Assembly: GCA_022822085.1 (NCBI GenBank)
Contig: JAJECK010000143.1
Span: forward strand, 1-32,918
DNA from: Candidatus Poribacteria bacterium
GTDB lineage: Bacteria > Poribacteria > WGA-4E > WGA-3G
DNA length: 32,918 bases
Reading direction: 5' to 3'
Below the pieces are notes generated by a model that ran no database searches, was not told where the DNA came from, and was given only the letters and a program-made list of their open reading frames with translations. This document shows positions 1 through 29,926 of this stretch, in pieces. The stretch's first letter is position 1, and the number at the start of each line of letters is the position of its first letter. The position numbers and the translations under genes were made by a program.

Positions 1-34
1 TGATTTCACAACGATCTAATGTTATACTAATCAT
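1..34 (-). CDS. N-terminal start of an unidentified gene, cut by the window edge
   Basis: Eleven codons (MISITLDRCEI) run off the left end of the window. The start is supported by a strong Shine-Dalgarno-like AGGAGAGG placed 6 nt upstream of the ATG. It lies on the same strand as the defence island and could be its next gene. Too little sequence is present to name a family. Confidence 0.5.
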   Translation of the reverse strand, partial: MISITLDRCEI

Positions 35-359
35 TGGTATCCTCTCCTATTCTAATAGATTATTTGGAAAGGATACCATTTTTCTATGTACATCGCAACA
101 AATACCTAAATTTAGATTTGTGCAAAAACTTTACACACCCAAATATAATCGCCAAACACTTGATCAGATTAGACGATTCTATAATGAAGTGTCAAACTAA
201 TTGGATCAACATGTTACAATTCCCGATAATCCCTTTTATAGTAAAATCCAAAAATATATGTACACTTTTGGTCCTTGGAACTTAAACTGCCTTATTGGAC
301 TGTGATGTCCCATAAACTTCCTAGTTTGTGCAGTCCCGTACGCCAACTAAAAATTTGCA
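35..359. other. Intergenic stretch with one short repeat
   Basis: No convincing gene is visible here. An open plus-strand frame at 34-285 has no ribosome binding site, starts opposite the start codon of the minus-strand gene, and has no recognisable protein features. The only structure seen is a 20-bp exact repeat at 214-233. Confidence 0.5.
214..233. repeat. 20-bp exact direct repeat, copy 1
   Basis: The 20 bases at 214-233 recur exactly at 2503-2522. Each copy lies at the 3' side of one of two related micro-ORFs (360-512 and 2503-2640), so this may be part of a larger duplication that has decayed. Confidence 0.7.
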
Positions 360-512
360 CTATAATTGTGTGCAGGTAATTATGGTTTCCACTATAAACA
401 CTTCTCTGACGTGCCAACCGATAAATTCTTCTTCTGGATAATAGGATAGCAGGGCGAAGTCATCTGCGAACCGATCCATCAGATGCTTCACGATTTCATC
501 ATATTGTGCCAT
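360..512 (-). CDS. 50-aa micro-ORF, copy 1 of a duplicated pair
   Basis: A 50-residue protein starting MAQYDEIVKHLMDRF and containing FALLSYYPEEE and HVREVF. It lies 38 nt downstream of the consensus-like promoter at 550-579. A second version, 45 residues long, is at 2503-2640 and shares IVKHLMDR, LSYYPEE and HVREVF. The N-terminus recalls Rpn/PD-(D/E)XK transposase-like proteins of mobile elements, which are much longer, so both may be truncated fragments. That family link is from memory and weak. The shared reading frame and conserved residues suggest that it was, or still is, translated. Confidence 0.45.
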   Translation of the reverse strand: MAQYDEIVKHLMDRFADDFALLSYYPEEEFIGWHVREVFIVETIITCTQL

Positions 513-540: not shown

Positions 541-588
541 CTTTTATTGATTATACTTGATGGGGGGTGGGGTTGTCAAGGGAAGTTT
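541..588. repeat. Left copy of the 48-bp promoter-bearing direct repeat
   Basis: The sequence at 541-588 is nearly identical to 5605-5651, differing by a few bases and one base of length. Both copies point the same way. They enclose the OLD, micro-ORF, DGQHR and GIY-YIG genes as well as an sspD remnant. Each repeat contains a full promoter. Confidence 0.8.
550..579 (-). promoter_or_regulatory. Consensus-like promoter for micro-ORF 360-512
   Basis: On the minus strand, a -35 TTGACA (574-579) and a -10 TATAAT (550-555) are separated by 18 bp. Both hexamers are perfect sigma-70-type consensus. The micro-ORF start at 512 lies 38 nt beyond the -10. Confidence 0.7.
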
Positions 589-634
589 TTGGGTGATTAG
601 AAATGTCGTAGGGTCGTTATAGTTATTTCGTAGG

Positions 635-2461
635 TCAGTTAACAAGCAATTTATTTAGGGCATCAAAGGCTTCTTGGAAACGATCAAGCTGTGGATCAGT
701 TAAATCGTTCTCAAGTGATTGAATGTTTTTGCTTAAATAATAAGCGGGTCGGTAATGGTTAAACTTTACACCTTTTGGAAGTGGATTATTTTCAAAGTAG
801 TCCTCAATTCGACGAATAATGCGTGGCGGATCCTTTGGTAAATCACCTATTTTTACAGAAACTCCAAATTCTCTGTTAACCAATTTTAAATAAAAGGAAG
901 GATTGAACATATCTTCAATATCTGCTTCTTTACCGTTCAAAAAGTCGGCATAGGTAAGAACTTGATTCTGTTTGAGCAATTTCGTCTTGTAGAGGTTTTC
1001 AATCTTCTGCTGATTTTTCTTTTGGTAATCAATGAGAACGGCGATATTCAAATCCGTCTGAGCACCAATCAGTGAGACGAATGTAGAAACCTTGTCAGAA
1101 CCTCCTACAGGAGTAATAGTCCAATCGGAACTCAAACCATCTTTACCTTGTGCCTGAAGAAGGGTGGAAATAGTTTGGATGTACAGCAGGTCCGACACCC
1201 CTTCAACAACGAGACTGTTAGGACCAATGAAAAGTGTCTGAGAAATTTCGTAACCGAGAGCACCTTGGAGAGGAAAAAGGCTGTCCGGAATAGCATCAAG
1301 GACTTCAGTAATAACTTTTGTTCCTTGCAGTTCATCTGGAAGGTTGTCAGGATTCGGCGCGCTGCTCAAATTTTGAACAATTCTTATACGATCAAAACGC
1401 GTAGGATCAACCATAAAAGGCGAATGAGTAGTGTAGATAAGTTGGTGGTGTGGGATGAGTTCTTCTTCAAAGTACCGAAGAAGGTCACCTTGGGCTTTTG
1501 CATGAAGAAAAAGACCCGGTTCATCCAAGAGCAATATGAGATTGTCGTTTTCCTCGCGAAGTTTTTGGTACCAGGCAAGAAAGGAGAAAAACCAGACAAA
1601 ACCTCGAGAACGGGTTCCTAACGCAGTACTCACCATGTCTTTCGTGTTTTGTACACGGCCCCAAATGTTCATTCCAGACCTCATTTCCTCAGGGTCTTCT
1701 GGCTGTGCAGATCGAATGTCAAATGACATACGAAGGTGTGGGTTTTGAGACCAATAAGGGAGCACTTTTTGAGTAAGAGAGTTTCCTGCATCTTCTAACT
1801 TGGCCATTAGGGTTTCTGTCTGTCCGGGATTTATTATTTGGTCCAGATCAAGACCAGCAAGTTGAATTAACCCAAGTAATGGATAGTCTGGATCTTCGAG
1901 AGTATTGTGTGTAACACGCTGCATAAGTTCTTCAATATTCTCTTGTCCTTTCATTTGGTAGTACTCGTCGAAATAAAGGAATTTAGGAAGCAGCTTAATA
2001 AAGTACATTCCAAGATCGTGATAGTGTTCACCAAAATATTCCTTCGTTAAATTTTGTCCCGTATCTATACTAGAGAAACTGAAAAAACGGGTGTTCGAGT
2101 ATCTTTTACTAAGAGTAATTGTTAGTGCTTTCTTCTTAGGAAATTCAAACTCATATATTTCTTTAGCATTTTCTATGGTTTCAGGGTCAATCCTAAATGT
2201 TCCTGTGACAACATTTGCTGGTTTTTGGTCACCAGTTTTAACATTTTTTTCGTAGTCAACTAATGTTTAGCGTGGATAGTCTTCTGTTGGATCAAAATCT
2301 CCATCACCTTCGTTGATGGGATTCAAACGGTAAAGTGCTTTTAATAAAGCAGTTTTACCTGCCTCATTCTTCCCCACCAAACAAGTCGCATCATCAATAT
2401 TAAACTCGGTTGAGTCTTGAATGCTCCGAAAATTTGTGATATGTACTTTTGTAAGTTTCAT
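635..2461 (-). pseudogene. OLD-family ATPase/Toprim nuclease, interrupted by one in-frame TAA
   Basis: One frame runs from the ATG at 2461 to the stop at 635, 608 codons, broken only by a TAA at 2267-2269 (codon 65). Translation between that stop and the downstream ATG at 2008 is in the same frame with no other stop, so this is one gene with a single nonsense change. The N-terminal piece opens with MKLTKVHITNFRSIQD and a Walker A GKNEAGKT at residues 30-37. The rest has a Walker B LLLLDEPG, an H-loop TTHSPF, and a Toprim-like half with LVVEGVSDLLY and VLIDYQ. OLD nucleases of this layout cleave DNA with ATPase control and are common in phage defence. The break separates Walker A from Walker B, so activity would be lost unless the stop is a sequencing error or is read through. 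It lies at the end of the GIY-YIG/DGQHR run. Confidence 0.8.
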
Positions 2462-2502
2462 GTCTTTTTACCAAATTTATCTGAAATTATTTTATTAGAC
2501 GA

Positions 2503-2640
2503 TTACAATTCCCGATAATCCCATTGAAACACTTCTCTGACATGCCCAACTACTACTTCTTCTGGATAATAGGATAGCATGGCGAAGTAAGCGGCGTAAC
2601 GGTCCATCAGATGCTTCACGATTTTGTCATGTTTAATCAT
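2503..2640 (-). CDS. 45-aa micro-ORF, copy 2 of a duplicated pair
   Basis: A 45-residue protein, MIKHDKIVKHLMDRY at its N-terminus, related to the micro-ORF at 360-512. Its ATG overlaps the end of the DGQHR gene in an ATGATTAA arrangement, which suggests translational coupling. The last codons cover the 20-bp repeat at 2503-2522. Both copies end soon after HVREVF but with different tails. No function can be assigned. It may be a fragment of a mobile-element gene or a small conserved protein. Confidence 0.45.
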   Translation of the reverse strand: MIKHDKIVKHLMDRYAAYFAMLSYYPEEVVVGHVREVFQWDYREL

Positions 2641-4810
2641 CGGTCTCATCTACCTCATCATCTTCAATTTCAGATACAGATTGCCCTTTTATTTTTCTGA
2701 TTTCTTCCAAATCATTCTTTATATCATTTTCATCAATTTCAAGTGAATTCTTAAATGCATCTACAATATCCTTGACTGTTCTCTCATCAAGATCCTTTTG
2801 AAAATTTGCCTTTTCACTTTCGTTAAGAGGAAGAGGTTCAATTTCCTCCTTATAAGCGTATCGAATTCTGTAAAGTTTTTGCCGCCATTTCCTTTGGACT
2901 GTTTCAATGCTGGCTGCTTCTTCATCTCCATAACTGCTCAATAGTTCTAGAATAAGATATCTGCAAAAATGACCGTCAGACGGTATTAAACCACCTCGCG
3001 GTTTAAAAATAGATCTCAGACTGCTTGGATCCAAATGATTAAACATTACGGATCTAATTCCTTCAGAGTCCTGGAATCTTTCATTAATGTAAGATATCCA
3101 TTTATCTACTGTTTGAATAAATTCTTGTCGATCTTCAATTCCTATTTTCGCTTTCAGATAGGCAAAGGCCATAAATAATCCTGTTTGGAAAGCATTTGAG
3201 CAAAAACAATCAAAAATTGAGTTTACCTTTTTGAATTGCTCATCAGTAGGATCTGAACTAAGTTCTAGATAAAATTTAGCTCTATGTATTTTAGCCTTTT
3301 CCTCCATTGCTCGTAGAACTTCCCATGCTCTTTGTACATTTGATTTTTCACCGTTTCCTTCAGAACTACTATTACTATTATCATTTTGTTGTTTTTCATT
3401 TTGTTGTTTTTCACTTTGTTGTTTTTCACTAAGTGTATGTCGTAGCCCTTGCCCCTGAACTAGTGCGGTATGAGCGATTTGGCTTTCTCTATAGTAAGGT
3501 CCGCTTTTTTCTAAAACGGTGTCAACTGCTTCAATATGCTTTGCAAAAGGGTAGAATTTGCTCAGTGAGCTCAGAATCACTTGACCCCATCCATCCTGGA
3601 AACATTGACGAAATATATCTTCACCATGCCTAGGATAATTGTACTGTTCAATATTCGCTATTCCAATACCAAGAGATTCTTTGTCTTCTTCTGTTAGGAC
3701 ATTATCCAAATCTAATTCTCTTCGAAGACGTTGATTATTCACAGCAGGCCTGCCGCTATAATACCGTGTCATAGGGTCAAGTATAGCGTTATCACTTGAT
3801 AGAAGAACAAACCTGATGATGTCAAAAATGGTGAATACGTTTGTTAGAGCAAAAGGACGAGTAGTAGGCACTTTATCGTGTGGATTATCGTATTCCGTAT
3901 GATATAATTTAAGCATGTCAGTTGCAGTATTTTTCTTCACCATATTAAATAAATGACGAGTAAAACATGCTACTAAATCCGTGTCATCCAACAGAATTTC
4001 TCGTGCTTTTGATGGTTGACGAGCATTTCGGTTTACATCAAGAAAAAGCCTTCGGCAAGCAACAGTCAGGTTCCTTTCCGCTTCGTTTTCAACTCCGGTT
4101 GTTAATTCAGGGAAGTAGGCAATACAAACAGGAAGGTGAATTTGATGCAGAACGGGCATATCTAAGTTTCTTTCCTCATAAAAGTACTGGAATTCACTTC
4201 CATTTCCACTCCACTTGTTTGACGAAGCACTTCGATACGCTGCTAACACTGCCATAGCGCGATGTTGTCCATCTACTATAACAAGTTTTGCCTGCGTAGG
4301 ATGAATACAGAGATCGGTTGGAGATTGTGCTAATTGATCATTTTCTTTCACTTCACGTTTTACTGAAAAGACGTTCCCATATTTGAAAACTTTTAATGGA
4401 ACTCCTTGATCCTCGTCATTATCTAAAGTACGTCCAGGATAAAGTTCATCCATGTTATTTCCATTCATGGGAACAATGATAGCAAGTATAGGTGGGAAAA
4501 ATCTAGGTGAAAAAGTTGTTTCTTCAGAAAGGGTTTCTCCAAGTAAATAGGGCACCATTTTCTCTGAAACGCGATAATCGTCAAGGTCACGTTGAAGTAA
4601 ATGATCGAAATCTAGGTCTTCTATGTTAAAGACTTCTCGAACAGGTACAAGAAGGTCAAGTAGTTGACCATTTGGAGTGTCCCCCCCATCAAGCGAAGCG
4701 TATGTTAAAATATACTCAACTGTTAAATTAGCATTTGGAACCTTGAAAGTCCCTAAAACACCCTGCACATCAATAGTGGAAACTTCGACTTTGTTGGATC
4801 TTCTTGGCAT
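2633..4810 (-). CDS. DGQHR-domain protein (DndB/ParB-like superfamily), large version
   Basis: 725 residues with the signature LVIVDGQHRAMAVLAAYR, DGQHR at residues 180-184. DGQHR proteins include DndB, a regulator in Dnd phosphorothioation systems, and DpdB-like proteins of deazapurine DNA modification. The motif belongs to a wider ParB/DUF262-related group that binds nucleotides or DNA. The region after residue 460 is rich in S, E, K, Q and N and carries a tandem EKQQ repeat, probably a flexible linker. The C-terminus is very acidic. A GGGGAGGAG ribosome site lies within the end of the upstream GIY-YIG gene, only 2 nt separate stop and start, and the two are surely co-translated. Role inferred: regulator or modification sensor. 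A direct catalytic role is also possible. Confidence 0.75.
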   Translation of the reverse strand: MPRRSNKVEVSTIDVQGVLGTFKVPNANLTVEYILTYASLDGGDTPNGQLLDLLVPVREVFNIEDLDFDHLLQRDLDDYRVSEKMVPYLLGETLSEETTFSPRFFPPILAIIVPMNGNNMDELYPGRTLDNDEDQGVPLKVFKYGNVFSVKREVKENDQLAQSPTDLCIHPTQAKLVIVDGQHRAMAVLAAYRSASSNKWSGNGSEFQYFYEERNLDMPVLHQIHLPVCIAYFPELTTGVENEAERNLTVACRRLFLDVNRNARQPSKAREILLDDTDLVACFTRHLFNMVKKNTATDMLKLYHTEYDNPHDKVPTTRPFALTNVFTIFDIIRFVLLSSDNAILDPMTRYYSGRPAVNNQRLRRELDLDNVLTEEDKESLGIGIANIEQYNYPRHGEDIFRQCFQDGWGQVILSSLSKFYPFAKHIEAVDTVLEKSGPYYRESQIAHTALVQGQGLRHTLSEKQQSEKQQNEKQQNDNSNSSSEGNGEKSNVQRAWEVLRAMEEKAKIHRAKFYLELSSDPTDEQFKKVNSIFDCFCSNAFQTGLFMAFAYLKAKIGIEDRQEFIQTVDKWISYINERFQDSEGIRSVMFNHLDPSSLRSIFKPRGGLIPSDGHFCRYLILELLSSYGDEEAASIETVQRKWRQKLYRIRYAYKEEIEPLPLNESEKANFQKDLDERTVKDIVDAFKNSLEIDENDIKNDLEEIRKIKGQSVSEIEDDEVDETDD
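3382..3426. repeat. 15-bp tandem repeat, three units, in coding sequence
   Basis: Three 15-bp units at 3382-3396, 3397-3411 and 3412-3426 encode the repeated pentapeptide (S/N)EKQQ in the linker of the DGQHR protein. A unit of 15 bp changes length without shifting the frame. Confidence 0.85.
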
Positions 4811-4812
4811 AA

Positions 4813-5478
4813 TTATCTCCTCCCCAAAATAGGGTAAAACATTCTGTTTAATAGGGTTTCAGCGGTTTCAACAGTTTTACGAATTCTCTCCAATGAAAGA
4901 TTGGGTTGGTGTACATAAGTGACACCAACCATCAGTTCATTAGGATCTATTTTTCTTTCTACGATACGTTCAGCAAAATTCCTATCATTTTGCAAAGAAT
5001 CTTTACTGTCAATAGGGTCTTCAGGTATGGCATCTTCTTGTAATTTTTTATTATATTTTTCGATGAGTCGCGTATGTGCCTGTAAACGTTGTTTTAGATT
5101 TTTCGACACTCCGATATACAAGGGACCGGTGAGTAGCGGTACAGCTAAGTCCAATATTTTGCTAATTAATTCCCTTTCCTCAAGATCCTCAAGCATTTCT
5201 TGAAAATTAGGGGCAAATGGTTGTTTGTTATGTCCGTACCACAAATGGTTCAAGTCTCCTTCCATTTTCAGGTTGAAATGCCCTCCTACCTGCATAGCTA
5301 AAGTTGGGTAGCAGATTTGCTCTGCAATCCTCTTAAGTACTTTAGAAAAATTTTGGGCTGATTCTATATTGCTCCTACCGGGCCTAATTCGAAGGTACCA
5401 AGCATAGAGTCCTGGTTTTGCCTCCGCATCAGACACTGTTTCAAAGGAAAGTAAATTACTCAACATTTCAGACTTCAT
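4813..5478 (-). CDS. GIY-YIG nuclease-domain protein
   Basis: 221 residues. The GIY half reads PGLYAWYLR near residue 23, and the YIG half reads GPLYIGVSKNLKQRLQAH, with the expected Arg after YIG. The C-terminal AETLLNRMFYPILGRR supplies the conserved Glu and Asn of the fold. An insertion of about 85 residues separates the two halves, longer than in compact GIY-YIG domains. The key residues appear present, so nuclease activity is plausible. It lies immediately upstream of the large DGQHR gene and probably shares its transcript from the promoter at 5614-5642. No clear ribosome site precedes the ATG. In this setting it may be a restriction nuclease of the accessory module, which is inference. 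Confidence 0.75.
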   Translation of the reverse strand: MKSEMLSNLLSFETVSDAEAKPGLYAWYLRIRPGRSNIESAQNFSKVLKRIAEQICYPTLAMQVGGHFNLKMEGDLNHLWYGHNKQPFAPNFQEMLEDLEERELISKILDLAVPLLTGPLYIGVSKNLKQRLQAHTRLIEKYNKKLQEDAIPEDPIDSKDSLQNDRNFAERIVERKIDPNELMVGVTYVHQPNLSLERIRKTVETAETLLNRMFYPILGRR

Positions 5479-5510
5479 AAATCATCGTATTAGTAGTATT
5501 CGAAATTAAG

Positions 5511-5596
5511 ATTACTTATGACAAATCAGACAAGGTTCCTCATCATCGGTAAGAATTTCTATCAATCACCGATTCGGTTTTGCCTATCCTTTTTCT
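5511..5596 (-). pseudogene. Remnant of an sspD 3' end
   Basis: Read on the minus strand, this stretch matches the last codons of sspD (9574-9665). It keeps the EIL-TD segment, then lacks six codons in frame, and ends EEPCLICHK followed by TAA. The genuine sspD ends EEPCLVCHK with TGA. Differences include a synonymous Leu codon and a Val-to-Ile change. Upstream of the match a 5-base length difference breaks the frame. It sits between a consensus promoter and the GIY-YIG gene, and appears to be the tail of a second, lost sspD allele. Confidence 0.75.
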
Positions 5597-5604
5597 TAAA
5601 GGTG

Positions 5605-5651
5605 CTTTTATTGATTATACTTGATGGGTAGTGGGTTGTCAAGGGAAGTTT
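5605..5651. repeat. Right copy of the promoter-bearing direct repeat
   Basis: A 47-bp counterpart of 541-588 in the same orientation. Together the two copies bracket about 5 kb with the GIY-YIG, DGQHR, micro-ORF and OLD genes, a layout that would allow loss of the segment by homologous recombination. No terminal inverted repeats or transposase accompany it. Confidence 0.8.
5614..5642 (-). promoter_or_regulatory. Perfect consensus promoter upstream of the GIY-YIG gene
   Basis: The -35 TTGACA (5637-5642) and the -10 TATAAT (5614-5619) are 17 bp apart on the minus strand, matching the sigma-70 ideal. The transcript would pass through the sspD remnant as a leader of about 130 nt before reaching the GIY-YIG start. 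Nothing else is seen in the gap at 5652-5751. Confidence 0.7.
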
Positions 5652-5751
5652 CAACTGATACAACGTAAAATGCCACTCCTATTAGAAAGGGCAAATCTAA
5701 TCGTAAGTAAAAGATACGTTAATAGTTCTTACGTTTAGATAGAGAATTGAA

Positions 5752-7179
5752 TTATCCAGAAATGTCTTTTTTCATCTGTACAATCTGATCCCACATTTCA
5801 TCAACTTTTTCATCAGGTTGTGATGGTGTTAGAAAATGTTTCCATAAACTTTTAAGATTGTCAACATACTTACTATCATTTGGTTCTAAACCTAACACCC
5901 ATAGTTGAAGTCTGCGACCAGTCCTGACAGCCCAAGTACGCTCTTCGTTTCGCATTGTCCATTTAAGCTCATTTGTATCTTCAATTATGGAACCAACTAA
6001 CAGAAAATACTTCCAAGGAACTTGGTGAAGCTCCCACTCTAACTTATTAAGTCCTTTTAAAGCATCTCTTACAGTTTCTGTAGTAGGTTTTTCTGGATCT
6101 GAAATTCTTCTGTTTAGCATTTGTCTCACTATTTCGGCTAACATTTGTTGACCTATAGGCCAAAACAGGAGATGGTCTGTTCCTTCATTATCTTCTATAT
6201 TTGTCATATCATGAAATCGCATTTTTGTTGGGGCACTGTGTAGTACTGGAAGTTCTGCAAGTAATCCCTCCCAATACATTGATAATTCTTCATATAGTCT
6301 GTCTATGTATCCATCTGCTGGACGAAATCTTTTGAAATTCTTCAGGTCTGACTTTTCATTACTACTCGGATCCCATCCATCAGAAAGTCTTTTTGGTGAA
6401 CTCAATAATTCGATATTCATCTCATAAAAGGTTTCAATACTGGTAAAGAATGAATCTCCGGTTTTTAGATTTTTACCTTTTGTAGTCTTGATCTTTTCCG
6501 AGTCGCGTTGTTTTTCTGCATCCGATTGGAAGAAAGGTTTTTCTGTAATCAGTCGACGTGTGAGAATTGCGAATGTATCATCTTCGTCCATAATTATGTT
6601 TGTCGCTTGATCGGTTGGTTTAGCATAGCGATTAAGATTCGAAAATAGTCTGCGATACTTCTGCATAAAAGATTCGTCAGTTTCTTCCAAATTGGGAACG
6701 ACAACTATAACAGATAACTCATCGTCTTCAATGTTTTCTGGTTTACCATCATACTCAGAATTATTTCGATCGAGAAGTGTTTTAATCGCCGAGAGTCGGT
6801 GCTGTCCATCTAAAGCATAATATTTTTGTGATCCATCAAACTGTAATATTCCAAACGATTTATTTAACCGTTGATCATTATGCAATAGTGTAAAACGCGG
6901 ATCGTCAGTAACTTTCACTCTATGGAAGATTGGATTCCCCTTAATTGCAGCAATTACAACAGAAGAAAAGAAACGATCTGGTTGTCGTTTCAAATATTCT
7001 ACGATATCTTTCTTAACACGACTTTCATCCAAGATTCTCTGAATGGCAGTATCTAGGGTTTTGTCATCATGAACTTCATAAGCAAACATCACATTTTGGC
7101 TTAGTTCGCTTGCACTCATTTTTACAATATAATAATCCCACGTTCCCATTTTCGAACGAAGGGCTGGATATATGTTCAT
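5752..7179 (-). CDS. DGQHR-domain protein (DndB-like), small version
   Basis: 475 residues with KYYALDGQHRLSAIKTLL, DGQHR at residues 124-128. The overall layout fits DGQHR proteins of the DndB-like group. DndB represses dnd operons and binds DNA, and the motif also occurs in other DNA-modification clusters. The start at 7179 is supported by AGGA about 9 nt upstream. It follows sspE by 74 bp on the same strand with no strong promoter between, so it is likely the last gene of the sspD-sspE transcript. It shares little with the 725-residue protein outside the motif region, so the two are not recent duplicates. Proposed role: regulator or sensor for the phosphorothioation genes. This is inferred. 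Confidence 0.75.
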   Translation of the reverse strand: MNIYPALRSKMGTWDYYIVKMSASELSQNVMFAYEVHDDKTLDTAIQRILDESRVKKDIVEYLKRQPDRFFSSVVIAAIKGNPIFHRVKVTDDPRFTLLHNDQRLNKSFGILQFDGSQKYYALDGQHRLSAIKTLLDRNNSEYDGKPENIEDDELSVIVVVPNLEETDESFMQKYRRLFSNLNRYAKPTDQATNIIMDEDDTFAILTRRLITEKPFFQSDAEKQRDSEKIKTTKGKNLKTGDSFFTSIETFYEMNIELLSSPKRLSDGWDPSSNEKSDLKNFKRFRPADGYIDRLYEELSMYWEGLLAELPVLHSAPTKMRFHDMTNIEDNEGTDHLLFWPIGQQMLAEIVRQMLNRRISDPEKPTTETVRDALKGLNKLEWELHQVPWKYFLLVGSIIEDTNELKWTMRNEERTWAVRTGRRLQLWVLGLEPNDSKYVDNLKSLWKHFLTPSQPDEKVDEMWDQIVQMKKDISG

Positions 7180-7253
7180 AGGTAATTCCTAAAATCTGAA
7201 TAGTTTTAATGTTATAGTCATTAGAAAAAGTTTAATAATTGCGTATTAAAGTC

Positions 7254-9539
7254 TTAGTAACCGAGCCAAGGTGCTATTTCATCCCAAGCGAGTTCAAGAA
7301 TGTTTTTCGTCCGTTTTTGGATAATCTCCTTTGTCCACTCAGTTACGTTGGCAATAGAATCCAGCATATCAAGTCGTCCTTGGTCTTTGAGTAAATCTAT
7401 GGTTTGCTTTCTGAAGGTTAGGCCTTCATTCTTGGCTTGTTCAATTTGACTGTCTCTATCATCCTCAGTTTTTGCTACTAAGGCTCGGTAAAATAATATT
7501 TTCTTATTCCAAGGGGCGTTACCAACACTAGAATTTTCCTTTTGTGGAAGCAGAATGATGTTTCCGATCATATGACAAGTACGCGACATCTGATAGATTC
7601 CCGAGTCCCAACCGCCAGAGCTTGAAACCGGGGCAACATGTTCAACAGTTGCATATTTGTCATCTAACCACTTACTATAGTTAAGAAATGTTAATTGGTC
7701 ACTAGGTATCACATTTTCACGTTTAAGAAGACCAGGATTCTCCCCATCCTGCAAAGCGTTATGGGAAGCCGCAAAAAGCAAGAACCGGCACAAAGGTCGA
7801 GAGCGTTCAGCTAAAGGCACTTCCCACACTCGCGAAACCCAAGTTTCCTTGCTTTCCACTCTAATACGTGAAGCAGCCAAATAATTTTGTAATATTCCCA
7901 CAAGTTCTTCCAAACTGAGAAGCGCATTTGAATCATTTAATTCTGCACAGAGCGTTCCCATCGTTTTTCTAAAGTCGGAATCAATTCCACTAGTACTGCC
8001 AGTAATTGAGCGTCTTAAAACAAGAAAAGCAGTTAGTGCTTTAACGGCATCTACGAAGGTATCCTCGACTTTATCTTGCCTATATTGTTCCCAATATCTT
8101 GCTATTATTGGAAGTGCCAAACTTGTTCTCATCTCAGATATGAAAGTGCAACAGAGTTTAAGCCAATTGCTATTATCGTTGTGATGAATGCTGTCAAGAG
8201 TTCGGATCGAATCACGGTTCCAATAAGTTTGTCGAAATTCTGCAATATCCGCTAACGATTGAACCATTTGATGTTTGTGGCTCGGATTCGTAATTTCTTC
8301 AAATTTTGTTCGCAAATAAGCACGCTGAGAAGCAAGGTTCAGAGGCAACTTATGTCCTTCAAGATATAAAGCAAATGTGACAAGTAAATCTTTAGTTTCC
8401 TTCTGTCGTTTATCGGTATCAGGATAAATCTGATTTAAATTTTCTTCAAGTCTTTCAAACTGTCTGGCACTTTCAGTTCCACTAAAACTCATATTTCCGT
8501 TTTCCCGTTCAAAACTCATCACACGAGGTTTGAAAGTTTCAATAGCCGTCAAAGGTTCACCAGTTGTATTGAGAGAATCAAATATATCAAAGGCTGCATC
8601 TTCATCGTCCGTCTCTACACGTGTTAAAATAACTGATTTCAACACGTAGTGAGAAAATAATATAATTCGGATAAGTCCGCTTGATTCTGGGTTGTTAGCA
8701 ATATCACTAATGGCACGGTTTATTGTTGATTGGCCAGACAGCGTATCAAGTTTTCCAAACAGATTGCGTAATCCTGTCTTCTGAAAATCCTTGTGACTAA
8801 TTTGATTGTGCTCAAGCTCACTTTTATCTTCAGTTTCTTGAATATCATCCCCCTTATATATGCCTAGATTAACTTGATTTTTTATGTATTCATAGTTCTG
8901 AAAAAAACGATGTATGTCAGCTTCTTCTGTTTGAACGGGCGTGAAAGCTGAAGTGTCTTGTAAATAGTATTTGCTAAAATCACTCAAGAATTTAGCGATT
9001 CCAGAACGATATTCTGCCTCGGAGTAACTAAACGCACGGTTATCCTCAGGAAAACGAACTACACGAGGGAATCCTGCTGTTTGACCTCGACTGTGGAGTT
9101 GACCTATGACACAGTTATATAATCTTTCTAGAATAAACTCAACTTCCTTTTTTATCCAGCTAATCGTAGATTCTTGAAGACTGCTAGTGTCGTCTTCTCG
9201 TATGGACAATTCTTCAATTAATACACAGCAAAGAAGGATTAATGTTGTTAATCTCTGTTGTCCATCAACTACAGAAAGTGAAGTTCCATCAAACGATGGT
9301 TCCGATCTTTCCGACACTAGGATTATCGTCCCAAGGAATGTATACGATTCTCTGCTAGGATTGGTAAGATAGTAGAATCCATTTAAGCAATCTTCTAGAA
9401 GTCGTTTAATATTTTCTTTATTCCAATCATAAGTTCTTTGGTATTCAGGGATACGAAAACCGACGTTTCCGTTATGGCAATTCATTGTGTTCTCAAAATT
9501 ATCAGCAATTGCGTCAAAAATATCTGAGTCTAATGGCAT
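7254..9539 (-). CDS. sspE: SspE-like effector: DUF262 NTPase plus DUF1524 HNH nuclease
   Basis: 761 residues. The N-terminal DUF262 part has FRIPEYQRTYDWN (residues 28-40) and VVDGQQRLTTLILL with DGQQR at 92-96. The C-terminal DUF1524 part has the HNH motif VEHVAP (His634), HMIGNIILLP with Asn660, and NAPWNKK. The same domain order is found in GmrSD fused proteins and in SspE of the SspABCD-SspE system. There the DGQQR motif supports NTP hydrolysis stimulated by phosphorothioate DNA, and the HNH end damages invading DNA. Gene order next to sspB, sspC and sspD homologs favours SspE over a stand-alone type IV GmrSD enzyme. AAGGAG lies 8 nt before the start. Both motifs look intact. Confidence 0.8.
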   Translation of the reverse strand: MPLDSDIFDAIADNFENTMNCHNGNVGFRIPEYQRTYDWNKENIKRLLEDCLNGFYYLTNPSRESYTFLGTIILVSERSEPSFDGTSLSVVDGQQRLTTLILLCCVLIEELSIREDDTSSLQESTISWIKKEVEFILERLYNCVIGQLHSRGQTAGFPRVVRFPEDNRAFSYSEAEYRSGIAKFLSDFSKYYLQDTSAFTPVQTEEADIHRFFQNYEYIKNQVNLGIYKGDDIQETEDKSELEHNQISHKDFQKTGLRNLFGKLDTLSGQSTINRAISDIANNPESSGLIRIILFSHYVLKSVILTRVETDDEDAAFDIFDSLNTTGEPLTAIETFKPRVMSFERENGNMSFSGTESARQFERLEENLNQIYPDTDKRQKETKDLLVTFALYLEGHKLPLNLASQRAYLRTKFEEITNPSHKHQMVQSLADIAEFRQTYWNRDSIRTLDSIHHNDNSNWLKLCCTFISEMRTSLALPIIARYWEQYRQDKVEDTFVDAVKALTAFLVLRRSITGSTSGIDSDFRKTMGTLCAELNDSNALLSLEELVGILQNYLAASRIRVESKETWVSRVWEVPLAERSRPLCRFLLFAASHNALQDGENPGLLKRENVIPSDQLTFLNYSKWLDDKYATVEHVAPVSSSGGWDSGIYQMSRTCHMIGNIILLPQKENSSVGNAPWNKKILFYRALVAKTEDDRDSQIEQAKNEGLTFRKQTIDLLKDQGRLDMLDSIANVTEWTKEIIQKRTKNILELAWDEIAPWLGY

Positions 9540-9573
9540 ATAGAAATCTCCTTAAGATTCAATACAAAAAGAA

Positions 9574-10392
9574 TCACTTATGACAAACCAAACAAGGTTC
9601 CTCGTCATCCTCATCATCGTGAACATCGGTAAGAATTTCTATCAGTCGACGGTTTGGCTTTTCCTTTTTCTTGGATGCCTTCGCCTTTTCTGTGTTAGCC
9701 TTGATTTGTGCAATCCGTTCAGGATTCGCCAGTTCCTCAAGACTTTCACCCTGACTCCACGTGAACCGTTCCCCCGTATCCGAATTAAACTTCTCGTATT
9801 CTTTAGCAAGTTCAAAGAGGTCGGGGTGTTGTTCTAAGAGTCCTACCCATTCGGATTTACGTTGGAAGAAGCAGAAGTAGCACCCGGAACGTGTGCGCCA
9901 CTTGTAATAGTCGGGCAGACCGAGTCCGCTCTCCTCAAGGATTCGATAAACGTCCTCTTTGGTAATACCATCATCCTTGAATGGGTATTTGGGAATAATG
10001 TTTTGGAGGTTACTTGTTTTTAGCGGTTTGTAACCCACACGGTCTTCGTCAGCACGGATACCAATGTAGTGGAATGCTTTATCTTCGCCAACGTATTCTT
10101 CAAAAGGTTTTATTTTGAGTTTGATAGTACACCAACGGACTTGAGACGAAGGCAGTAAGCCACCGTGAAGTGTCAACCAGTGGTCAAAATCGCGTTCCAC
10201 GTTGAGGCGTGCAATCGGTTTACCGAGGAATGCCTCTAACCTGTCTAAAAAGTCGTACGTCTCTGGCAATTCCTTACCGGTATCTGTAAAGAAGTATTCC
10301 ATCTCTGGCACTCTGTCGCGCATATATACGGCAAGTGCTGAGCTGTCTTTTCCACCCGAGAGTCCGAGAAGATGACGTGTTTTATCTGCCAT
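9574..10392 (-). CDS. sspD: SspD/DndC-like PP-loop ATP pyrophosphatase (PAPS reductase family)
   Basis: 272 residues. The PP-loop SGGKDSS is at residues 12-18. RWCTIKLKIKP gives Cys88, and SGCYFCFFQRK gives Cys171 and Cys174. An extra CxxC (Cys267, Cys270) sits in the last six residues after an acidic stretch. DndC and SspD activate DNA with ATP for sulfur insertion and use cysteines, in DndC with an iron-sulfur cluster. Context with a DUF4007 gene and a large ATPase points to SspD rather than a CysH sulfate-assimilation enzyme. GGGGAG precedes the ATG by about 5 nt. sspE follows after 34 bp, and the small basic ORF ends 23 bp upstream. A diverged copy of this gene's tail is at 5511-5596. Confidence 0.8.
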   Translation of the reverse strand: MADKTRHLLGLSGGKDSSALAVYMRDRVPEMEYFFTDTGKELPETYDFLDRLEAFLGKPIARLNVERDFDHWLTLHGGLLPSSQVRWCTIKLKIKPFEEYVGEDKAFHYIGIRADEDRVGYKPLKTSNLQNIIPKYPFKDDGITKEDVYRILEESGLGLPDYYKWRTRSGCYFCFFQRKSEWVGLLEQHPDLFELAKEYEKFNSDTGERFTWSQGESLEELANPERIAQIKANTEKAKASKKKEKPNRRLIEILTDVHDDEDDEEPCLVCHK

Positions 10393-10646: not shown

Positions 10647-11003
10647 ATTGTCTGAATCACGGATTGGCACTGATTTCACGGATTACGCGGATTTTGGGTT
10701 CCTGTGTGACAGCGTTTTGTTAGCTGTCGTGTGCCTGCACCTTCTAATACCATTTCTATATGATAGCATGATATTATTTCGTAGGTCGGGTAGAAGCGGT
10801 AGCGAAACCCGACTTCTTATAGCGTCATGTCGGGTTTCGTTCCTCAACCCGACCTACAATATATTATGATAATTCGTCAATTAGAAATGCTATAATATCT
10901 CTAATCACACAAGAAACATCACCACATTCAGATTGGGCTGGATGAGCGTTGTTTAAAATCTGCGCAATCTGTGTAATCTGTGAAAATCCGCGATTCAGAC
11001 AAT
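10647..11003. mobile_element. MITE-like element with ~49-bp imperfect inverted repeats
   Basis: Imperfect inverted repeats of about 49 bp lie at 10647-10695 and 10955-11003. Each begins at its outer end with ATTGTCTGAATC. The interior carries no gene but includes the palindrome at 10781-10857. Flanking it are the sspC remnant on one side and the intact sspC end on the other. No transposase is present. It splits the sspB-sspC and sspD-sspE transcripts and fills most of the 451 bp between sspC and the small ORF. Confidence 0.65.
10745..10857. repeat. REP-like palindromic repeat, copy 1
   Basis: The lead TAATACCATTTCTATATGA (10745-10763) is followed by a palindrome at 10781-10857 whose arms are GTAGGTCGGGT and ACCCGACCTAC, with inner arms GAAACCCGAC and GTCGGGTTTC. 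Related copies start at about 22444, 25611 and 32820. A hairpin could act as a transcription barrier after sspC. Confidence 0.75.
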
Positions 11004-11022: not shown

Positions 11023-14000
11023 CTATTTTTCCGCCTCCTGCATCAATTTTTTTGAGATCCGAGCTAAAACTGCCAGGCGAAGTTCCAGATTTTCATCTAA
11101 ATCATATTCCTTAAATACTTTGATAATTGCTTCTTCGATTTGTTCTGCTTGCTTTTCATCATTCAGTTTAACGACCCGTTCCTGTTCGTTTTCGTTAGGA
11201 GTTGTAATACCTATACGCATGGTTTCTGTATCAGATTGATCATGTTGTAGTTTTTCATAAGAAACTGCCTCAAAATGCCTAAATTTCCTTGCAAGTTGAG
11301 AAAGGTTTATCTCAAATTGTGCTGTGTCGGTGTCAATCCAGGAAGCAGGTGGTTTTTTAGCCAGAAATGTTGCAAGTGCCTCAATCCAACCTGTGAAATC
11401 ATGTCCTTCGTTGCATAGATTGATTAAAAAACCTTTGAGTTGCGTTTCAATTGTGATCGCTAATAACGGTTCTGCCCTTTTTGCCAATTCATTTCGAAGT
11501 TCATCTTTTGAGACTTCCAACATGAAGGCATCTGCAAGCATCCTTTCAAGTGAGTTGAGTAGTTTGCTGTATGCACCCCCTAATTCGGAAAGGACATTCT
11601 GTAATGTATTGAAAAAATTAGCAAGTGCCTTTGAATCTGCTGATTCTGTAGTAAATGCAGAAAAACCGAGTGCCTCAGGTATCTGCTTAAAGAGAAGTTC
11701 GTCTGGTTCGCTTGCTTTGTTCACTACTTCTCGTAGATTTTTTGCTTCAACACTCAATTCCTGTGTTTTTTGTGTATAGTTTGGGAGTTGTGCAATGAAT
11801 CGCATCAGCGGTGCAACGATTGTCAACAAATCGGCATCTTCTGAGTATATAGGTTGATTCAGCAAATCTAAAAAATGTGAAAACAACTCTGTACGTATAC
11901 CTGTTAACCGAAAACGTTTCAGTTCAAAGTTTTCAGGAGCTTTTAACAATCTTTCAAAGACAGGCATTGAGAGATCGGCAACAAAGGAACCGTTTTCGTA
12001 AAGTGCGATTTCAGTTCTGTAGTGGAGTATTACTGCACACAACAGAATTGGCAGTGGTCCCTTTCGTACCCCGAGCGGTGGTTGTGTAAGATGATTGTAT
12101 AGATTTTCAACTGGTTGTCTCGACTCTTCACATTTGTCAAGAAAAGTCTCAATTGCATTCCACGTGTGTTTTATTCTATTTTTATCATCTTCTTTTGGTG
12201 GGTGGAATCCCCAGACTCCTGATTCTTGGCGATGTATACCTGTATCCCATAAGAGAGAACGGTAGATACTCATTTCAGGTGGGTATCCGTTAATATCGAG
12301 ATTTTCCTTATCACCATTTTCAAGCATGGCTTGAATTAGTTTTTTACGTGCAGAGGTTGCAGCACCAGAGATTTTACGACGGTTGATTAGTTCATTTCGT
12401 ATAAACGGTGTTTCGTAGAACACCTCATCACATATTTTCGAGAGGTATTCGTTTCTTGTGCGTTCAGAGTCAATTTCTGTTTGTTTACCTTTATGATACC
12501 AGGGACATAGTTCCTTATTTTCAACTTTGAAAATTTCTGACAACCTATCGGAGACTTCACGTTCAACTTCTGTGAGTCGTTTTTCAAGTTCACGTCTTGC
12601 AACAGAATCACCGTCAAGTTCAGGTGTGTTTTCTGAAACCCAATGTAAATATGCAAGTTGTGTAACAGCATCACTAAGAAAACCGATGGAATGTGGTATT
12701 GCAATTAGCACTTCTTTGCGTTTTGCGATGTCACCGTTTGTGGCTTTTTCTATGAGTTGATTTGCCTCAAAGTCATTTGCTGGTAAAGCATATAGAATAA
12801 GTCCATCTGCATCCCCAATAGGTTCGTTGAGGTCTGCATCAAAGTTATCAAAATCGGTGTAACGAATGGTGAAATATCGTAGTGTGCCAGTTTGGTGTAG
12901 ATGTCGCCTTGCGACAAGTGGACGTGTTGGCATGTAGCGTGAAAGATCAGTCACAAGTGCTGCTCTTGTGTCAACATGTGTTTCAGCTTCACGTAATTTT
13001 TCCTCAATGTCAACGTTACTTCCTTCCCATATCACGTAAACATTGTTGTGTCTACGGAAAGTAACTATAGAACGAGTCTTTAATGTTGTTATCGCATTAA
13101 AAAAATCGTTTTCAAATTCCTTTTCTCCGTTGTCTAATGCGTAACGGAGCAATTCCTCTGATGCTTTCAGGTTAGGAACGGTATCACGGACGATTCCGAG
13201 TAAACCGATAGTTTTAATTAATTTGACAGTCAGTTCAGATGGATTTTGTATTTGCATTAATGCAGATTCAATTTCTACCCACTTTTTGCCGTTACTTGAC
13301 GTAAAAAGTTCATTCCCTTGTGTAGCATCAAGATAATCGTATAGATCAGCAATTGTGTACTTCGGAAGTCCGGAACCGTCATAATCTCGTTGCGTAAGGA
13401 AATCCTGTAATCCGTAGGGTTCACTGGAATTGAGAAAAGCAAATAGTGATCGTTCGTTCTGTGCGAATCGTTTGAAAAGAGGACCAATGAGCAGGGCAAC
13501 TGTAGGATGTAGCGGTAGACACTCTTGTAATAGGTGTGAGAATTCATTTTCATTAAGCCGTTGTGGAATTAAACCTAACTCGGTTGCAGTGCTTAGATTT
13601 TCTTTAGAGATTATATCAGAAGGTTTCTTAAGTGCTGCACCCACTAAACGTAGTACCTGTTCGGTGGGTTCTGTAAAAACCACATCTTCAAATCTACCTT
13701 GCACCTTTGTCCACTCTTCACGTTGGGATTGTGCTGTCCGCTGTGCATAAGCCTCAAAAGCTTGATGCAGAATAGTCATCATAAACAGCGGCGTTTGTTG
13801 GCTTCGATCTGCTAATTCAGCAAGACTTTGAAGGATAAACATATCCCCCTGTGACGGATGCTGCGCGGCAAACTCAAGAAATTTACCAAGTTCATCAATT
13901 ATGAGCAACAAACCGGATCCACCTGAATCACAAATCTGGTGAGTTGCTGCATCAAAAAGGTGTGTAACTTCAGTGGCAGATGGGAGAGCATCTTTATTTG

Positions 14001-14505
14001 CTGAGTCCAAGAGTTCGTTAATTTCTTGGCAAAGCAAATTAGGTGTATGTGAACCGTTAGAATTAGATAGGCCACGGTCTAATCCACGCAATAAAGCAGG
14101 TGCAAGTGGTGCACGTTCTCCAGTAATGAGTATAGGACAGAATCCAGAATGTGTGTCTTCACCATTTCCGTTTGTGTTTATGAAACGTTCATACAGTGAT
14201 GTATCACCACGTTCTAAGAGTTCTAATGCTTGTTGTGCTGTCGGTGATTCTGAATTTCCTAATAATTTTGCAACAAATAGGGCAAAGGCTGATTTTCCTG
14301 ACCCGTAGGGACCGGTAAGTGACCACGCTTTAGAGGTTGACCCATTCTCAAGCGTTGAAATTACACGCGACAACATTTCACGTGCTGTAGCAGTTAGAAC
14401 ATAACCGTCTATAGCATTTTCTCTATAAAAGTCTCGTTCAAGATGCACTGAACGACGAAAACGACCCTGGACATGAAATAAATCAGACAGTGGAACGTTA
14501 GCCAT
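11023..14505 (-). CDS. sspC: SspC-like large P-loop ATPase
   Basis: 1160 residues. Walker A GPYGSGKS is at residues 65-72 and Walker B LLLIIDELGKF near 199-209 (Asp204, Glu205). After the ATPase domain comes a long, mostly helical region with no motif that I recognise. Large ATPases encoded between DUF4007 and PP-loop proteins are the C component of SspBCD, thought to supply energy for DNA sulfur modification. The start overlaps the end of sspB by 8 bp, with GAAGAGG as ribosome site inside sspB, so the two are translationally coupled. The end is intact (KKLMQEAEK), and a variant of this tail recurs at 10614-10643. The call rests mainly on neighbours and ATPase motifs. A BREX-type ATPase is a less likely alternative. 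Confidence 0.7.
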   Translation of the reverse strand: MANVPLSDLFHVQGRFRRSVHLERDFYRENAIDGYVLTATAREMLSRVISTLENGSTSKAWSLTGPYGSGKSAFALFVAKLLGNSESPTAQQALELLERGDTSLYERFINTNGNGEDTHSGFCPILITGERAPLAPALLRGLDRGLSNSNGSHTPNLLCQEINELLDSANKDALPSATEVTHLFDAATHQICDSGGSGLLLIIDELGKFLEFAAQHPSQGDMFILQSLAELADRSQQTPLFMMTILHQAFEAYAQRTAQSQREEWTKVQGRFEDVVFTEPTEQVLRLVGAALKKPSDIISKENLSTATELGLIPQRLNENEFSHLLQECLPLHPTVALLIGPLFKRFAQNERSLFAFLNSSEPYGLQDFLTQRDYDGSGLPKYTIADLYDYLDATQGNELFTSSNGKKWVEIESALMQIQNPSELTVKLIKTIGLLGIVRDTVPNLKASEELLRYALDNGEKEFENDFFNAITTLKTRSIVTFRRHNNVYVIWEGSNVDIEEKLREAETHVDTRAALVTDLSRYMPTRPLVARRHLHQTGTLRYFTIRYTDFDNFDADLNEPIGDADGLILYALPANDFEANQLIEKATNGDIAKRKEVLIAIPHSIGFLSDAVTQLAYLHWVSENTPELDGDSVARRELEKRLTEVEREVSDRLSEIFKVENKELCPWYHKGKQTEIDSERTRNEYLSKICDEVFYETPFIRNELINRRKISGAATSARKKLIQAMLENGDKENLDINGYPPEMSIYRSLLWDTGIHRQESGVWGFHPPKEDDKNRIKHTWNAIETFLDKCEESRQPVENLYNHLTQPPLGVRKGPLPILLCAVILHYRTEIALYENGSFVADLSMPVFERLLKAPENFELKRFRLTGIRTELFSHFLDLLNQPIYSEDADLLTIVAPLMRFIAQLPNYTQKTQELSVEAKNLREVVNKASEPDELLFKQIPEALGFSAFTTESADSKALANFFNTLQNVLSELGGAYSKLLNSLERMLADAFMLEVSKDELRNELAKRAEPLLAITIETQLKGFLINLCNEGHDFTGWIEALATFLAKKPPASWIDTDTAQFEINLSQLARKFRHFEAVSYEKLQHDQSDTETMRIGITTPNENEQERVVKLNDEKQAEQIEEAIIKVFKEYDLDENLELRLAVLARISKKLMQEAEK

Positions 14506-15433
14506 AATACCTCTTCAATAGATGCATCGGATCTACGTCTCTATGTCTATAGACCTGTTTTAATTCTGCAGTTTCATCGTACCGCATAGCACCATCTGTC
14601 AGTCCTTCAAGTTTTTCAAGATAAGTAGTCAATGTATCTTCATCTAATCTGAAAATACGTCCGGGACTTAATGGAGCAGATAGAATATCTGTAAATGTGA
14701 GAGAATCCCGTTCAGTGAAACGATTAACCCAAAATGCAATAAGTGTTGCCGAGAAGACTTCAATTGGCAATGTTACCTTTTCTCCCCGCTGGAATTCATA
14801 TCCGTCATCATCATGCAATTCAGAAATAAGGTTGAGTTCAACGAGTGGACAATCGAAGGACTCTTCCATGACAGCAGTAGTTTGCCGTGAGTGGCAGTAG
14901 GTTCTGATAAAGCAATTTACATCGCGCTCAAGTGTATTATCGGAGGCAGGTCGCATAGATTCTTTGTTGTTTAATACCCAATCATACATCTGTTGTTTAA
15001 ATGTTTGCCGTAAAAATTGATTATTTTTAAGTATATTAAATGCCCAATACCAAGTAGTTGCTTGGTTCATATTTGTTGAGATTTTCCAGTGAATTAACCA
15101 TAGTGTAGCAGGATCATCAAGGTATGGGTCAAAACCATTTTCTTCAAAAATCACTTTACCCAATTCTGTTGGAACACAACGATGTCGTTGTGAATTATCA
15201 GTATATATTAGTCCTGCAACACTACACCAGTGACGTATTGAATTAACCATATTTTTACCAACCCCTAAAGTCACTGATGCATTCTCAGATGAGAAAACAT
15301 CAGGTTCTTTGGTAACTGCATCAAAACCTTTTTTCAACCAAGTATATCGGAATGGAAAGGTTTGGTGCCCAGAGAATGATGGGTTGATCAGATATGACGT
15401 AGATGAATGTTCTGCAAGAAGAAAATTTTCCAT
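14498..15433 (-). CDS. sspB: SspB-like DUF4007 protein
   Basis: 311 residues from the Met at 15433. DUF4007 features are FSGHQTFPFRYTWLKKG near the N-terminus, LGVGKNMVNSIRHW, and DDPATLWLIHW. SspB, a DUF4007 protein, is reported to act as a DNA nickase in single-strand phosphorothioation and to work with SspC and SspD. An upstream in-frame ATG at 15451 would add six residues but falls within the promoter, so it is rejected. With the start at 15433 the transcript is leaderless, since the -10 ends 6 nt before it. It heads the sspB-sspC operon and diverges from glnD. Confidence 0.75.
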   Translation of the reverse strand: MENFLLAEHSSTSYLINPSFSGHQTFPFRYTWLKKGFDAVTKEPDVFSSENASVTLGVGKNMVNSIRHWCSVAGLIYTDNSQRHRCVPTELGKVIFEENGFDPYLDDPATLWLIHWKISTNMNQATTWYWAFNILKNNQFLRQTFKQQMYDWVLNNKESMRPASDNTLERDVNCFIRTYCHSRQTTAVMEESFDCPLVELNLISELHDDDGYEFQRGEKVTLPIEVFSATLIAFWVNRFTERDSLTFTDILSAPLSPGRIFRLDEDTLTTYLEKLEGLTDGAMRYDETAELKQVYRHRDVDPMHLLKRYYG

Positions 15434-15439
15434 ACAAAA

Positions 15440-15468
15440 ATTATACCACAATCACCCCAAATTATCAA
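15440..15468 (-). promoter_or_regulatory. Promoter of sspB-sspC
   Basis: The -35 TTGATA (15463-15468) and -10 TATAAT (15440-15445) are 17 bp apart. The -10 ends 6 nt upstream of the sspB ATG at 15433, implying leaderless translation. The spacing and hexamers closely match the promoter at 10579-10607. Confidence 0.7.
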
Positions 15469-22443: not shown

Positions 22444-22510
22444 TAATACCACTTCTAATTATTTTTGGACCCTTTTTCCGTAGGTCGGGTAGAGGCACGA
22501 AACCCGACAC
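22444..22510. repeat. REP-like palindromic repeat, copy 2 (one arm)
   Basis: A variant of the lead sequence is followed at 22480 by GTAGGTCGGGTAGAGGCACG and the inner arm GAAACCCGAC. The expected closing arm is replaced by a looser GGGTTTCGCTTCGCTCTACCC at about 22568-22588. Confidence 0.65.
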
Positions 22511-22664
22511 GTGATGATTGTGTCTATCATGTCCAAATCAACGCAGAATGCGCGTTTGGCATTCTGCGGGTTTCGCTTCGCTCTACCCATAAGCGTCAAT
22601 TTAGCGGAGATTTAAAGGTAGCAGGCACACGCCGTGGGTCCTCCGTCCGCAAGCGAAAAAATCA

Positions 22665-29742: not shown

Positions 29743-29794
29743 CCAGTTTGCGGTATTTGACGCACAGACTGGCAGTTTATGCTATAGACACACA

Positions 29795-29864: not shown

Positions 29865-29926
29865 TAGGGACGATATGTTTATAGAAAAACGTCCTTAACA
29901 CCTTCTTTAGTCCCGGGGAATGCCTT

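What the first reader, a model, noticed from the sequence alone, without database searches (positions are those of the whole stretch)
541..5651. A 5-kb nuclease/DGQHR cassette bracketed by promoter-bearing direct repeats
The 48-bp repeat at 541-588 and the 47-bp copy at 5605-5651 lie in the same orientation, each with TTGACA and TATAAT at 17-18 bp spacing. The OLD, DGQHR and GIY-YIG genes lie between them. Recombination between the copies would remove the cassette yet leave one promoter, so the cassette could be swapped or lost cleanly.
Basis: partly seen in the sequence, partly recalled or inferred. Interest (0 to 1): 0.6.

Follow-up and report, generated by a model that had tools for sequence, protein, structure and literature searches.

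The report
Rpn-promoter repeats bound defence-gene cassette
The two repeats around this defence-gene cassette in a Poribacterium are copies of the promoter of a neighbouring Rpn-like nuclease gene, and across the genus this promoter marks the edge of a chromosomal slot where DNA-phosphorothioation defence modules are added and swapped.

Summary
The repeats are real. 541-588 and 5605-5651 match at 45 of 48 positions, and they are the only perfect TTGACA-N15..19-TATAAT sites in the window. Both promoters lie on the minus strand, co-directional with the cassette. They are not recombinase sites. The ~50 bp sequence ('REP') is the promoter of an Rpn-like nuclease gene. It occurs in 18 of 18 genus genomes (1-6 loci each), and 25 of 31 copies precede that gene.

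The cassette (GIY-YIG, DndB-like DGQHR, and an OLD-like ATPase broken by an in-frame stop) belongs to an SspBCDE phosphorothioation island. In 13 of 18 genomes REP lies downstream of sspD with variable cargo between them (SspE, PbeA/C, DndB-like, HNH, TIR, Dpd-like).

REP-bracketed cassettes recur in G004 and G016. A one-repeat allele without the cassette exists: the window's flanks joined across it are 92.6% identical to contiguous G014 DNA. The dndB-REP block is 95% identical to G014, against 77% for uvrC.

Downstream of REP, sequence jumps through short shared stretches into truncated 3' tails of island genes. I infer step-wise accretion by homology-facilitated illegitimate recombination, anchored in REP/rpn. 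Excision in this strain, and any active role of the nuclease, are untested.

The parts
5605..5651 (-). REP copy 2: promoter of the Rpn-like gene family (TTGACA 5642-5637, N17, TATAAT 5619-5614); now drives the GIY-YIG/DGQHR/OLD genes (inferred)
   Evidence: joined to dndB exactly as in G014 (94.9% over 5585-7182)
5584..5604 (-). remnant of the Rpn-like 5' leader, ending in the joint to the sspD tail (shared GAAAAAGG-like stretch)
5507..5597 (-). remnant of the 3' end of a second sspD, upstream of GIY-YIG (in relatives GIY-YIG directly follows intact sspD)
   Evidence: self-repeat with 9573-9672; tblastn to SspD residues 245-272
4813..5478 (-). GIY-YIG-like protein, 221 aa (Pfam score just below cut-off)
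   Evidence: homologues directly after SspD in L085, L086, L087
2633..4810 (-). DGQHR/DndB-like protein, 725 aa
   Evidence: PF14072 E 1.4e-7; TIGR03187 domain below its cut-off
2503..2642 (-). remnant 1: Rpn-like codons 1-22 fused to the last ~25 codons of an island HNH nuclease gene; no REP
635..2461 (-). OLD/AriA-like AAA ATPase (TOPRIM-like C-terminus by inspection), interrupted by in-frame TAA at 2267-2269
   Evidence: unbroken homologues in G003:C29 and G030:C148
541..588 (-). REP copy 1: same promoter, in front of a truncated Rpn-like reading frame
388..512 (-). remnant 2: Rpn-like codons 1-22 (443-512) joined at ATCCT to the HNH gene tail (388-447); tail end continues at 214-238
   Evidence: same fusion in G016:C53
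233..379 (.). ~145-bp dispersed MITE-like element inserted in remnant 2
   Evidence: about 30 copies or fragments in own genome
1..141 (.). end of a multicopy IS-like element at which the contig stops
   Evidence: identical ~140 bp at about 11 other places, several of them contig ends
5752..7179 (-). DndB-like DGQHR protein, 475 aa; module carried with REP copy 2
   Evidence: PF14072 E 4e-33; 96.1% nt and 87% fourfold-site identity to G014
7254..9539 (-). SspE (GmrSD-type nuclease)
   Evidence: PADLOC SspE E 6e-259
9574..10392 (-). SspD (PAPS-reductase-like)
   Evidence: PADLOC SspD E 5e-119
11023..14505 (-). SspC
   Evidence: PADLOC SspC E 0
14498..15451 (-). SspB (DUF4007)
   Evidence: PADLOC SspB E 3e-99

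Best explanation
SHOWN: the repeat is the conserved promoter (REP) of an Rpn-like PD-(D/E)XK-type nuclease gene of this Poribacteria genus. REP-rpn, usually followed by a ribokinase gene, forms the downstream edge of a chromosomal slot that holds phosphorothioation (Ssp-type) and other defence modules. In the window a GIY-YIG/DGQHR/OLD module sits between two REP copies because modules were added in series. INFERRED: each addition happened by homology-facilitated illegitimate recombination. Incoming island DNA ending in its own REP-rpn pairs with the resident REP-rpn, while the other end joins by a short shared stretch inside the resident rpn leader or 5' coding region. This leaves a truncated rpn, then a truncated 3' tail of an island gene, then intact module genes, then REP again. 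By-products are that each module keeps or gains a strong promoter at its border, and that a direct repeat is created which could later delete the module (inferred, not observed).
For: REP in 18/18 genus genomes, none reliably in 128 others. 25/31 copies lie just before the Rpn-like start; upstream sequence unrelated except in module-sharing pairs. SspD lies upstream of REP in 13 genomes, ribokinase downstream in 15. Modules travel with REP: dndB-REP window/G014 94.9%, c30-dndB'-REP in G003/G004, PbeA-PbeC-c33-REP in G003/G004, HEC-01-like pair-REP in own C121. Truncated-gene joints with short shared sequence. In G016 the Rpn|HNH-tail fusion continues colinear with the ordinary G017 island and then ends in REP-rpn and the start of ribokinase. 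Fourfold-site identity to G014: dndB 87%, sspD 71%, versus uvrC 37%, glnD 37%, thrS 46%. Joined-flank empty site 92.6%.
Against: Only sequence comparison; no strain-level or read evidence of the event itself. Shared bases at the joints are 5-9 bp, and chance sharing at AT-rich joints cannot be excluded. Fusion copies in the window are 83% alike, so they are old, and the order of events is not fully resolved. The same mosaic could arise by ordinary homologous exchange plus later deletions. The genome is a draft in 158 contigs, and the window stops 540 bases beyond REP copy 1 at an IS.
Confidence: 0.7

Rival explanations
1. Ordinary homologous recombination between two conserved anchors (sspD on one side, REP-rpn-ribokinase on the other) swaps cargo; the second REP and truncated tails are decay products of later deletions.
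For: sspD is 82-90% identical across the genus with fourfold-site identity usually above the housekeeping genes; cargo lies between sspD and REP in 13 genomes.
Against: Does not by itself create REP | truncated-tail joints or two- and three-REP arrays (window, G004, G016). Probably acts alongside the favoured mechanism.
Confidence: 0.2
2. One reading: a dedicated mobile cassette that is cut out and re-inserted by recombination between the two promoter repeats.
For: Direct repeats in the right orientation; single-repeat allele in G014; RecA-independent excision between short direct repeats is known in E. coli (PMC5426353).
Against: No recombinase in the cassette; REP is a gene promoter found elsewhere; module left ends are truncated genes, not unit ends; GIY-DGQHR is a normal follower of sspD in three relatives.
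Confidence: 0.1
3. REP is a short dispersed mobile repeat (MITE-like) that inserted twice and carried a promoter by chance.
For: Several copies per genome; the genome is rich in MITE-like repeats.
Against: 25 of 31 copies sit at a similar distance before the same gene; no inverted ends or target duplications seen; conservation centred on the -35/-10 boxes and spacer.
Confidence: 0.04
4. The two-REP structure is an assembly chimera.
For: Draft genome; contigs in G016 and the window end near REP or IS copies.
Against: The REP copies differ at 3 of 48 positions with different leaders; the dndB-REP side matches G014 contiguously; the Rpn|HNH fusion occurs independently in G016.
Confidence: 0.05

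Closest known systems
SspABCD-SspE phosphorothioation defence (e.g. PMC9646914, PMC8092258)
   Same: sspB, sspC, sspD and sspE in one direction, with strong family matches
   Different: Followed by two DndB-like DGQHR genes, GIY-YIG and an OLD-like gene; sspA not adjacent (a cysteine desulfurase at 25962-27122 matches SspA and DndA models equally); effectors are exchanged between sspD and REP in relatives
Rpn (YhgA-like) recombination-promoting nucleases (PMC5350276, PMC10327210)
   Same: TIGR01784 hits in 16 of 28 family members; conserved D5, D48, E65, Q67, R79 parallel the RpnA residues D11, D63, E82, Q84, R94; defence-island setting; extra C-terminal copies nearby
   Different: Very divergent: Pfam PF04754 hits 1 of 28 at E 0.044. 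Here its promoter is the recurrent edge of defence modules, which I did not find described
Vibrio cholerae T6SS effector/immunity arrays proposed to arise by homology-facilitated illegitimate recombination (PMC5361080)
   Same: Serial addition next to a conserved homology anchor leaving truncated or orphan remnants
   Different: Anchor here is a promoter/5' end of a nuclease gene and the modules are anti-phage defence effectors
Chromosomal defence hotspots and modular islands (e.g. PMC12629846, PMC9122126; titles and abstracts only)
   Same: Fixed location, variable defence content
   Different: No integrase, tRNA or phage genes seen in the window; border is REP-rpn

Membership tests
SspABCD-SspE system | sspB, sspC, sspD adjacent and co-directional | tested here: met
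   E 3e-99, 0, 5e-119; coordinates
SspABCD-SspE system | SspE nuclease with GmrSD N and C domains | tested here: met
SspABCD-SspE system | SspA cysteine desulfurase in the operon | tested here: inconclusive
   only a desulfurase 10 kb away; SspA and DndA models score equally; a housekeeping desulfurase may serve
SspABCD-SspE system | phosphorothioated DNA and phage restriction | not testable with these tools
   needs chemistry and phage assays
Rpn family (gene whose promoter is REP) | profile match to Rpn family model | tested here: inconclusive
   TIGR01784 in 16/28 members, best E 8e-6, but not in the query itself; PF04754 1/28, E 0.044
Rpn family (gene whose promoter is REP) | D...D...ExQ...R active-site set | tested here: met
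   alignment A1 columns D5, D48, E65, Q67, R79 against the RpnA residues in PMC5350276; correspondence by order and spacing, no direct alignment to RpnA
Rpn family (gene whose promoter is REP) | PD-(D/E)XK fold | tested here: inconclusive
   AlphaFold pLDDT 85; Foldseek to PDB weak, best E 0.015, with McrC, BamHI, Kpn2I and MspJI among the hits
Integrative/site-specific element | integrase or recombinase gene | tested here: not met
   cassette genes are GIY-YIG, DGQHR and OLD-like only
Integrative/site-specific element | att site, often in a tRNA gene | tested here: not met
   no tRNA in the window; repeats are gene promoters
Composite transposon | IS copies or inverted repeats flanking the unit | tested here: not met
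   REP has no inverted ends and no transposase; an IS end lies at 1-141 only
Homology-facilitated illegitimate recombination product | homologous anchor on one side, short-homology joint on the other | tested here: met
   comparative evidence only, no event observed

The most novel reading that the evidence does not exclude
The Rpn-like nuclease is not a passive border: it cuts incoming or resident DNA and actively promotes RecA-independent capture of defence modules next to its own gene, so each module arrives with, and is switched on by, the nuclease's own promoter.
Probability: 0.12. Interest if true: 0.85.

Novelty: new variant of a known kind. Interest (0 to 1): 0.52.

Why it matters
It gives a traceable record of how phosphorothioation effectors (SspE, PbeA/C, DndB-like, GIY-YIG, HNH, TIR) are stacked and replaced at one slot, and what the moving unit's edges look like. 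E. coli Rpn proteins promote RecA-independent recombination by an unsettled natural route. A genus in which an Rpn-like gene recurrently borders captured modules offers a natural setting in which to test whether Rpn helps gene acquisition. It also points to GIY-YIG plus a long DndB-like protein as an Ssp-linked module whose function is untested.

Tried and rejected
A site-specific cassette was rejected for lack of a recombinase and because REP is a gene promoter. REP as a MITE was rejected from the alignment. The Pfam scan of the Rpn-like protein alone gave nothing; the family assignment needed NCBIfam over the whole alignment. Foldseek gave no significant match. The genome-contig scan with the 725-aa DGQHR protein gave one other Poribacterium, useful only for naming the phylum. 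I tried to close the gap between the window contig (C73) and C121 (FRG-TPR, HEC-01-like pair, REP, intact Rpn-like gene, ribokinase). Both ends carry the same 24-bp IS terminal repeat facing each other, and in the closed G010 genome glnD and ribokinase flank one slot. The IS is multicopy, so adjacency is likely but unproven.

Full report
CHECK OF THE OBSERVATION. The two repeats exist at the stated places: 541-588 and 5605-5651, direct orientation, 93.75% over 48 columns with one gap. A 30-base pattern from them has two hits in the window and none expected. They contain the only perfect TTGACA-N15..19-TATAAT sites in the window, both on the minus strand with spacers of 17 and 18. The promoter at 5605-5651 points into the cassette and the one at 541-588 points out of it. 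Between them lie a 221-aa GIY-YIG-like protein, a 725-aa DGQHR/DndB-like protein and an OLD/AriA-like ATPase. The ATPase frame is interrupted by a TAA at codon 65.

WHAT THE REPEAT IS. The host is a Poribacterium, judged by the closest named relative. In the same genome a third copy lies at contig C121, 28 bases before an intact 291-aa gene. Over 146 genomes the repeat (here REP) is found in all 18 members of the genus, 1 to 6 times each. The only other hit is one weak match (E 8e-4) in an unrelated genome. Aligned with flanks, 25 of 31 genus copies sit just before the start of that same gene family. Conservation covers the -35 box, the spacer, the -10 box and a few bases either side, while the upstream DNA is unrelated except where two genomes share a module. 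REP is therefore the gene's promoter. The gene family has the residue set D5, D48, E65, Q67, R79, which parallels the RpnA residues D11, D63, E82, Q84, R94 (PMC5350276). The NCBIfam model for Rpn nucleases matches 16 of 28 members. The Pfam Rpn model and the PDB fold search are weak. I call it Rpn-like.

WHERE IT LIES. The window is an Ssp phosphorothioation island: SspB, SspC, SspD and SspE, then a DndB-like protein, then REP, then the cassette, then REP. In the genus, SspD lies upstream of REP in 13 of 18 genomes and a ribokinase gene lies downstream of REP in 15 of 18. The space between SspD and REP is variable: HNH nuclease, SspE, GHKL ATPase, TIR-STAND protein, PbeA and PbeC, GIY-YIG, DndB-like, a PD-(D/E)XK nuclease, a metallo-beta-lactamase protein, and a Dpd-like set. 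GIY-YIG plus the long DGQHR protein directly follow intact sspD in three relatives, two of them outside the genus. The cassette is thus an Ssp-linked module. Consistent with this, the window keeps the tail of a second sspD just upstream of GIY-YIG.

EVIDENCE FOR MOVEMENT. (1) Empty site: the window flanks joined in silico across the cassette align with contiguous G014 sequence (dndB - REP - Rpn-like start) at 226 of 244 positions. In G004 a GIY/DndB-like module lies between two REP copies, and G003:C118 has the same surroundings with one REP and no module. (2) Modules travel with REP: the dndB-REP block is 94.9% identical between window and G014, where uvrC, glnD and thrS are 77-81%. Fourfold-degenerate sites agree at 87% for dndB and 71% for sspD, but 37-46% for the three housekeeping genes. 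(3) Joints: downstream of REP the sequence switches to truncated 3' tails of island genes. In the window the Rpn leader joins the sspD tail across a GAAAAAGG-like stretch near 5584-5597, and Rpn codon 22 joins the tail of the island HNH gene at ATCCT. The second fusion is present twice in the window (443 and 2571) and once in G016. In G016 it continues colinear with the ordinary G017 island and ends in REP-rpn and the start of ribokinase. In G011 and G013 REP is joined directly to ribokinase.

MECHANISM. The pattern (a homologous border at REP/rpn on one side, a short-homology joint on the other, serial stacking with truncated remnants) is what homology-facilitated illegitimate recombination would leave. 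A similar model was proposed for Vibrio type VI effector arrays (PMC5361080). Shown here: REP identity, genus-wide linkage, module-REP linkage, empty alleles, joint sequences. Inferred: the recombination mechanism, the order of events, and that the 5605 promoter now transcribes the cassette. Not shown: present-day excision, and any role of the Rpn-like enzyme, although E. coli Rpn proteins do raise RecA-independent recombination when overexpressed (PMC5350276). Ordinary homologous exchange between sspD and REP probably also operates.

LIMITS. One genome per species, mostly draft; contigs break at IS and REP copies. The window itself ends in a multicopy IS end at 1-141, after a ~145-bp MITE-like insert at 233-379. 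The intact REP-rpn-ribokinase on C121 probably continues the same slot but this is not proven.

VERDICT. The repeats do bracket an exchangeable defence module, but as duplicated promoters of an Rpn-like border gene left by stepwise accretion, not as the arms of a dedicated cassette. I found no description of this Rpn-bordered phosphorothioation slot in the papers searched, but those cover open-licence full text only.

Noticed in passing
G000 contigs C153, C36, C38, C54, C26, C102 (L028-L041); G010 L108; G001 L089: Rpn-like genes are followed by one or more extra copies of only their C-terminal part (about residues 205-290), sometimes in tandem. In E. coli the separately made Rpn C-terminus is the antitoxin (PMC10327210), so these could be antitoxin arrays.
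   Followed up: no
G003:C118, G005, G008, G009, G010, G015, G017 (L090, L098, L100, L101, L104, L105, L109): SspD (84-95% identical) occurs without SspB or SspC in the stretch fetched, usually followed by the HNH nuclease; some stretches end near a contig edge.
   Followed up: partly
G010 L101 9346-14655 and G015 L105: Six-gene Dpd-like cargo (TGT-fold protein with weak DpdA match, weak DpdC match, BrxD-like ATPase) in the same slot.
   Followed up: partly
window 1-141; L013 117-141: Multicopy IS-like end with terminal sequence TTTGTGCAAAAACTTTACACACCC, found at many contig ends; C121 begins with the matching opposite end.
   Followed up: partly
window 233-379: About 145-bp MITE-like repeat with about 30 copies or fragments in the genome, inserted in the HNH tail remnant.
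   Followed up: partly
window 10828-10857, 22480-22512, 32858-32890: 30-33-bp GTAGGTCGGGTAGAGGCACGAAACCCGACA repeat in both orientations in intergenic DNA.
   Followed up: no
window 25727-25835, 29634-30042: Family of ~109-bp palindromic repeats (4 copies), also downstream of ribokinase on C121.
   Followed up: no
window 2267-2269: In-frame TAA at codon 65 of the OLD-like ATPase; relatives have unbroken frames.
   Followed up: partly
window 22976-25603: 875-aa YibE/F-like membrane protein made of two tandem halves, with an internal 61-bp repeat at 80% identity.
   Followed up: no
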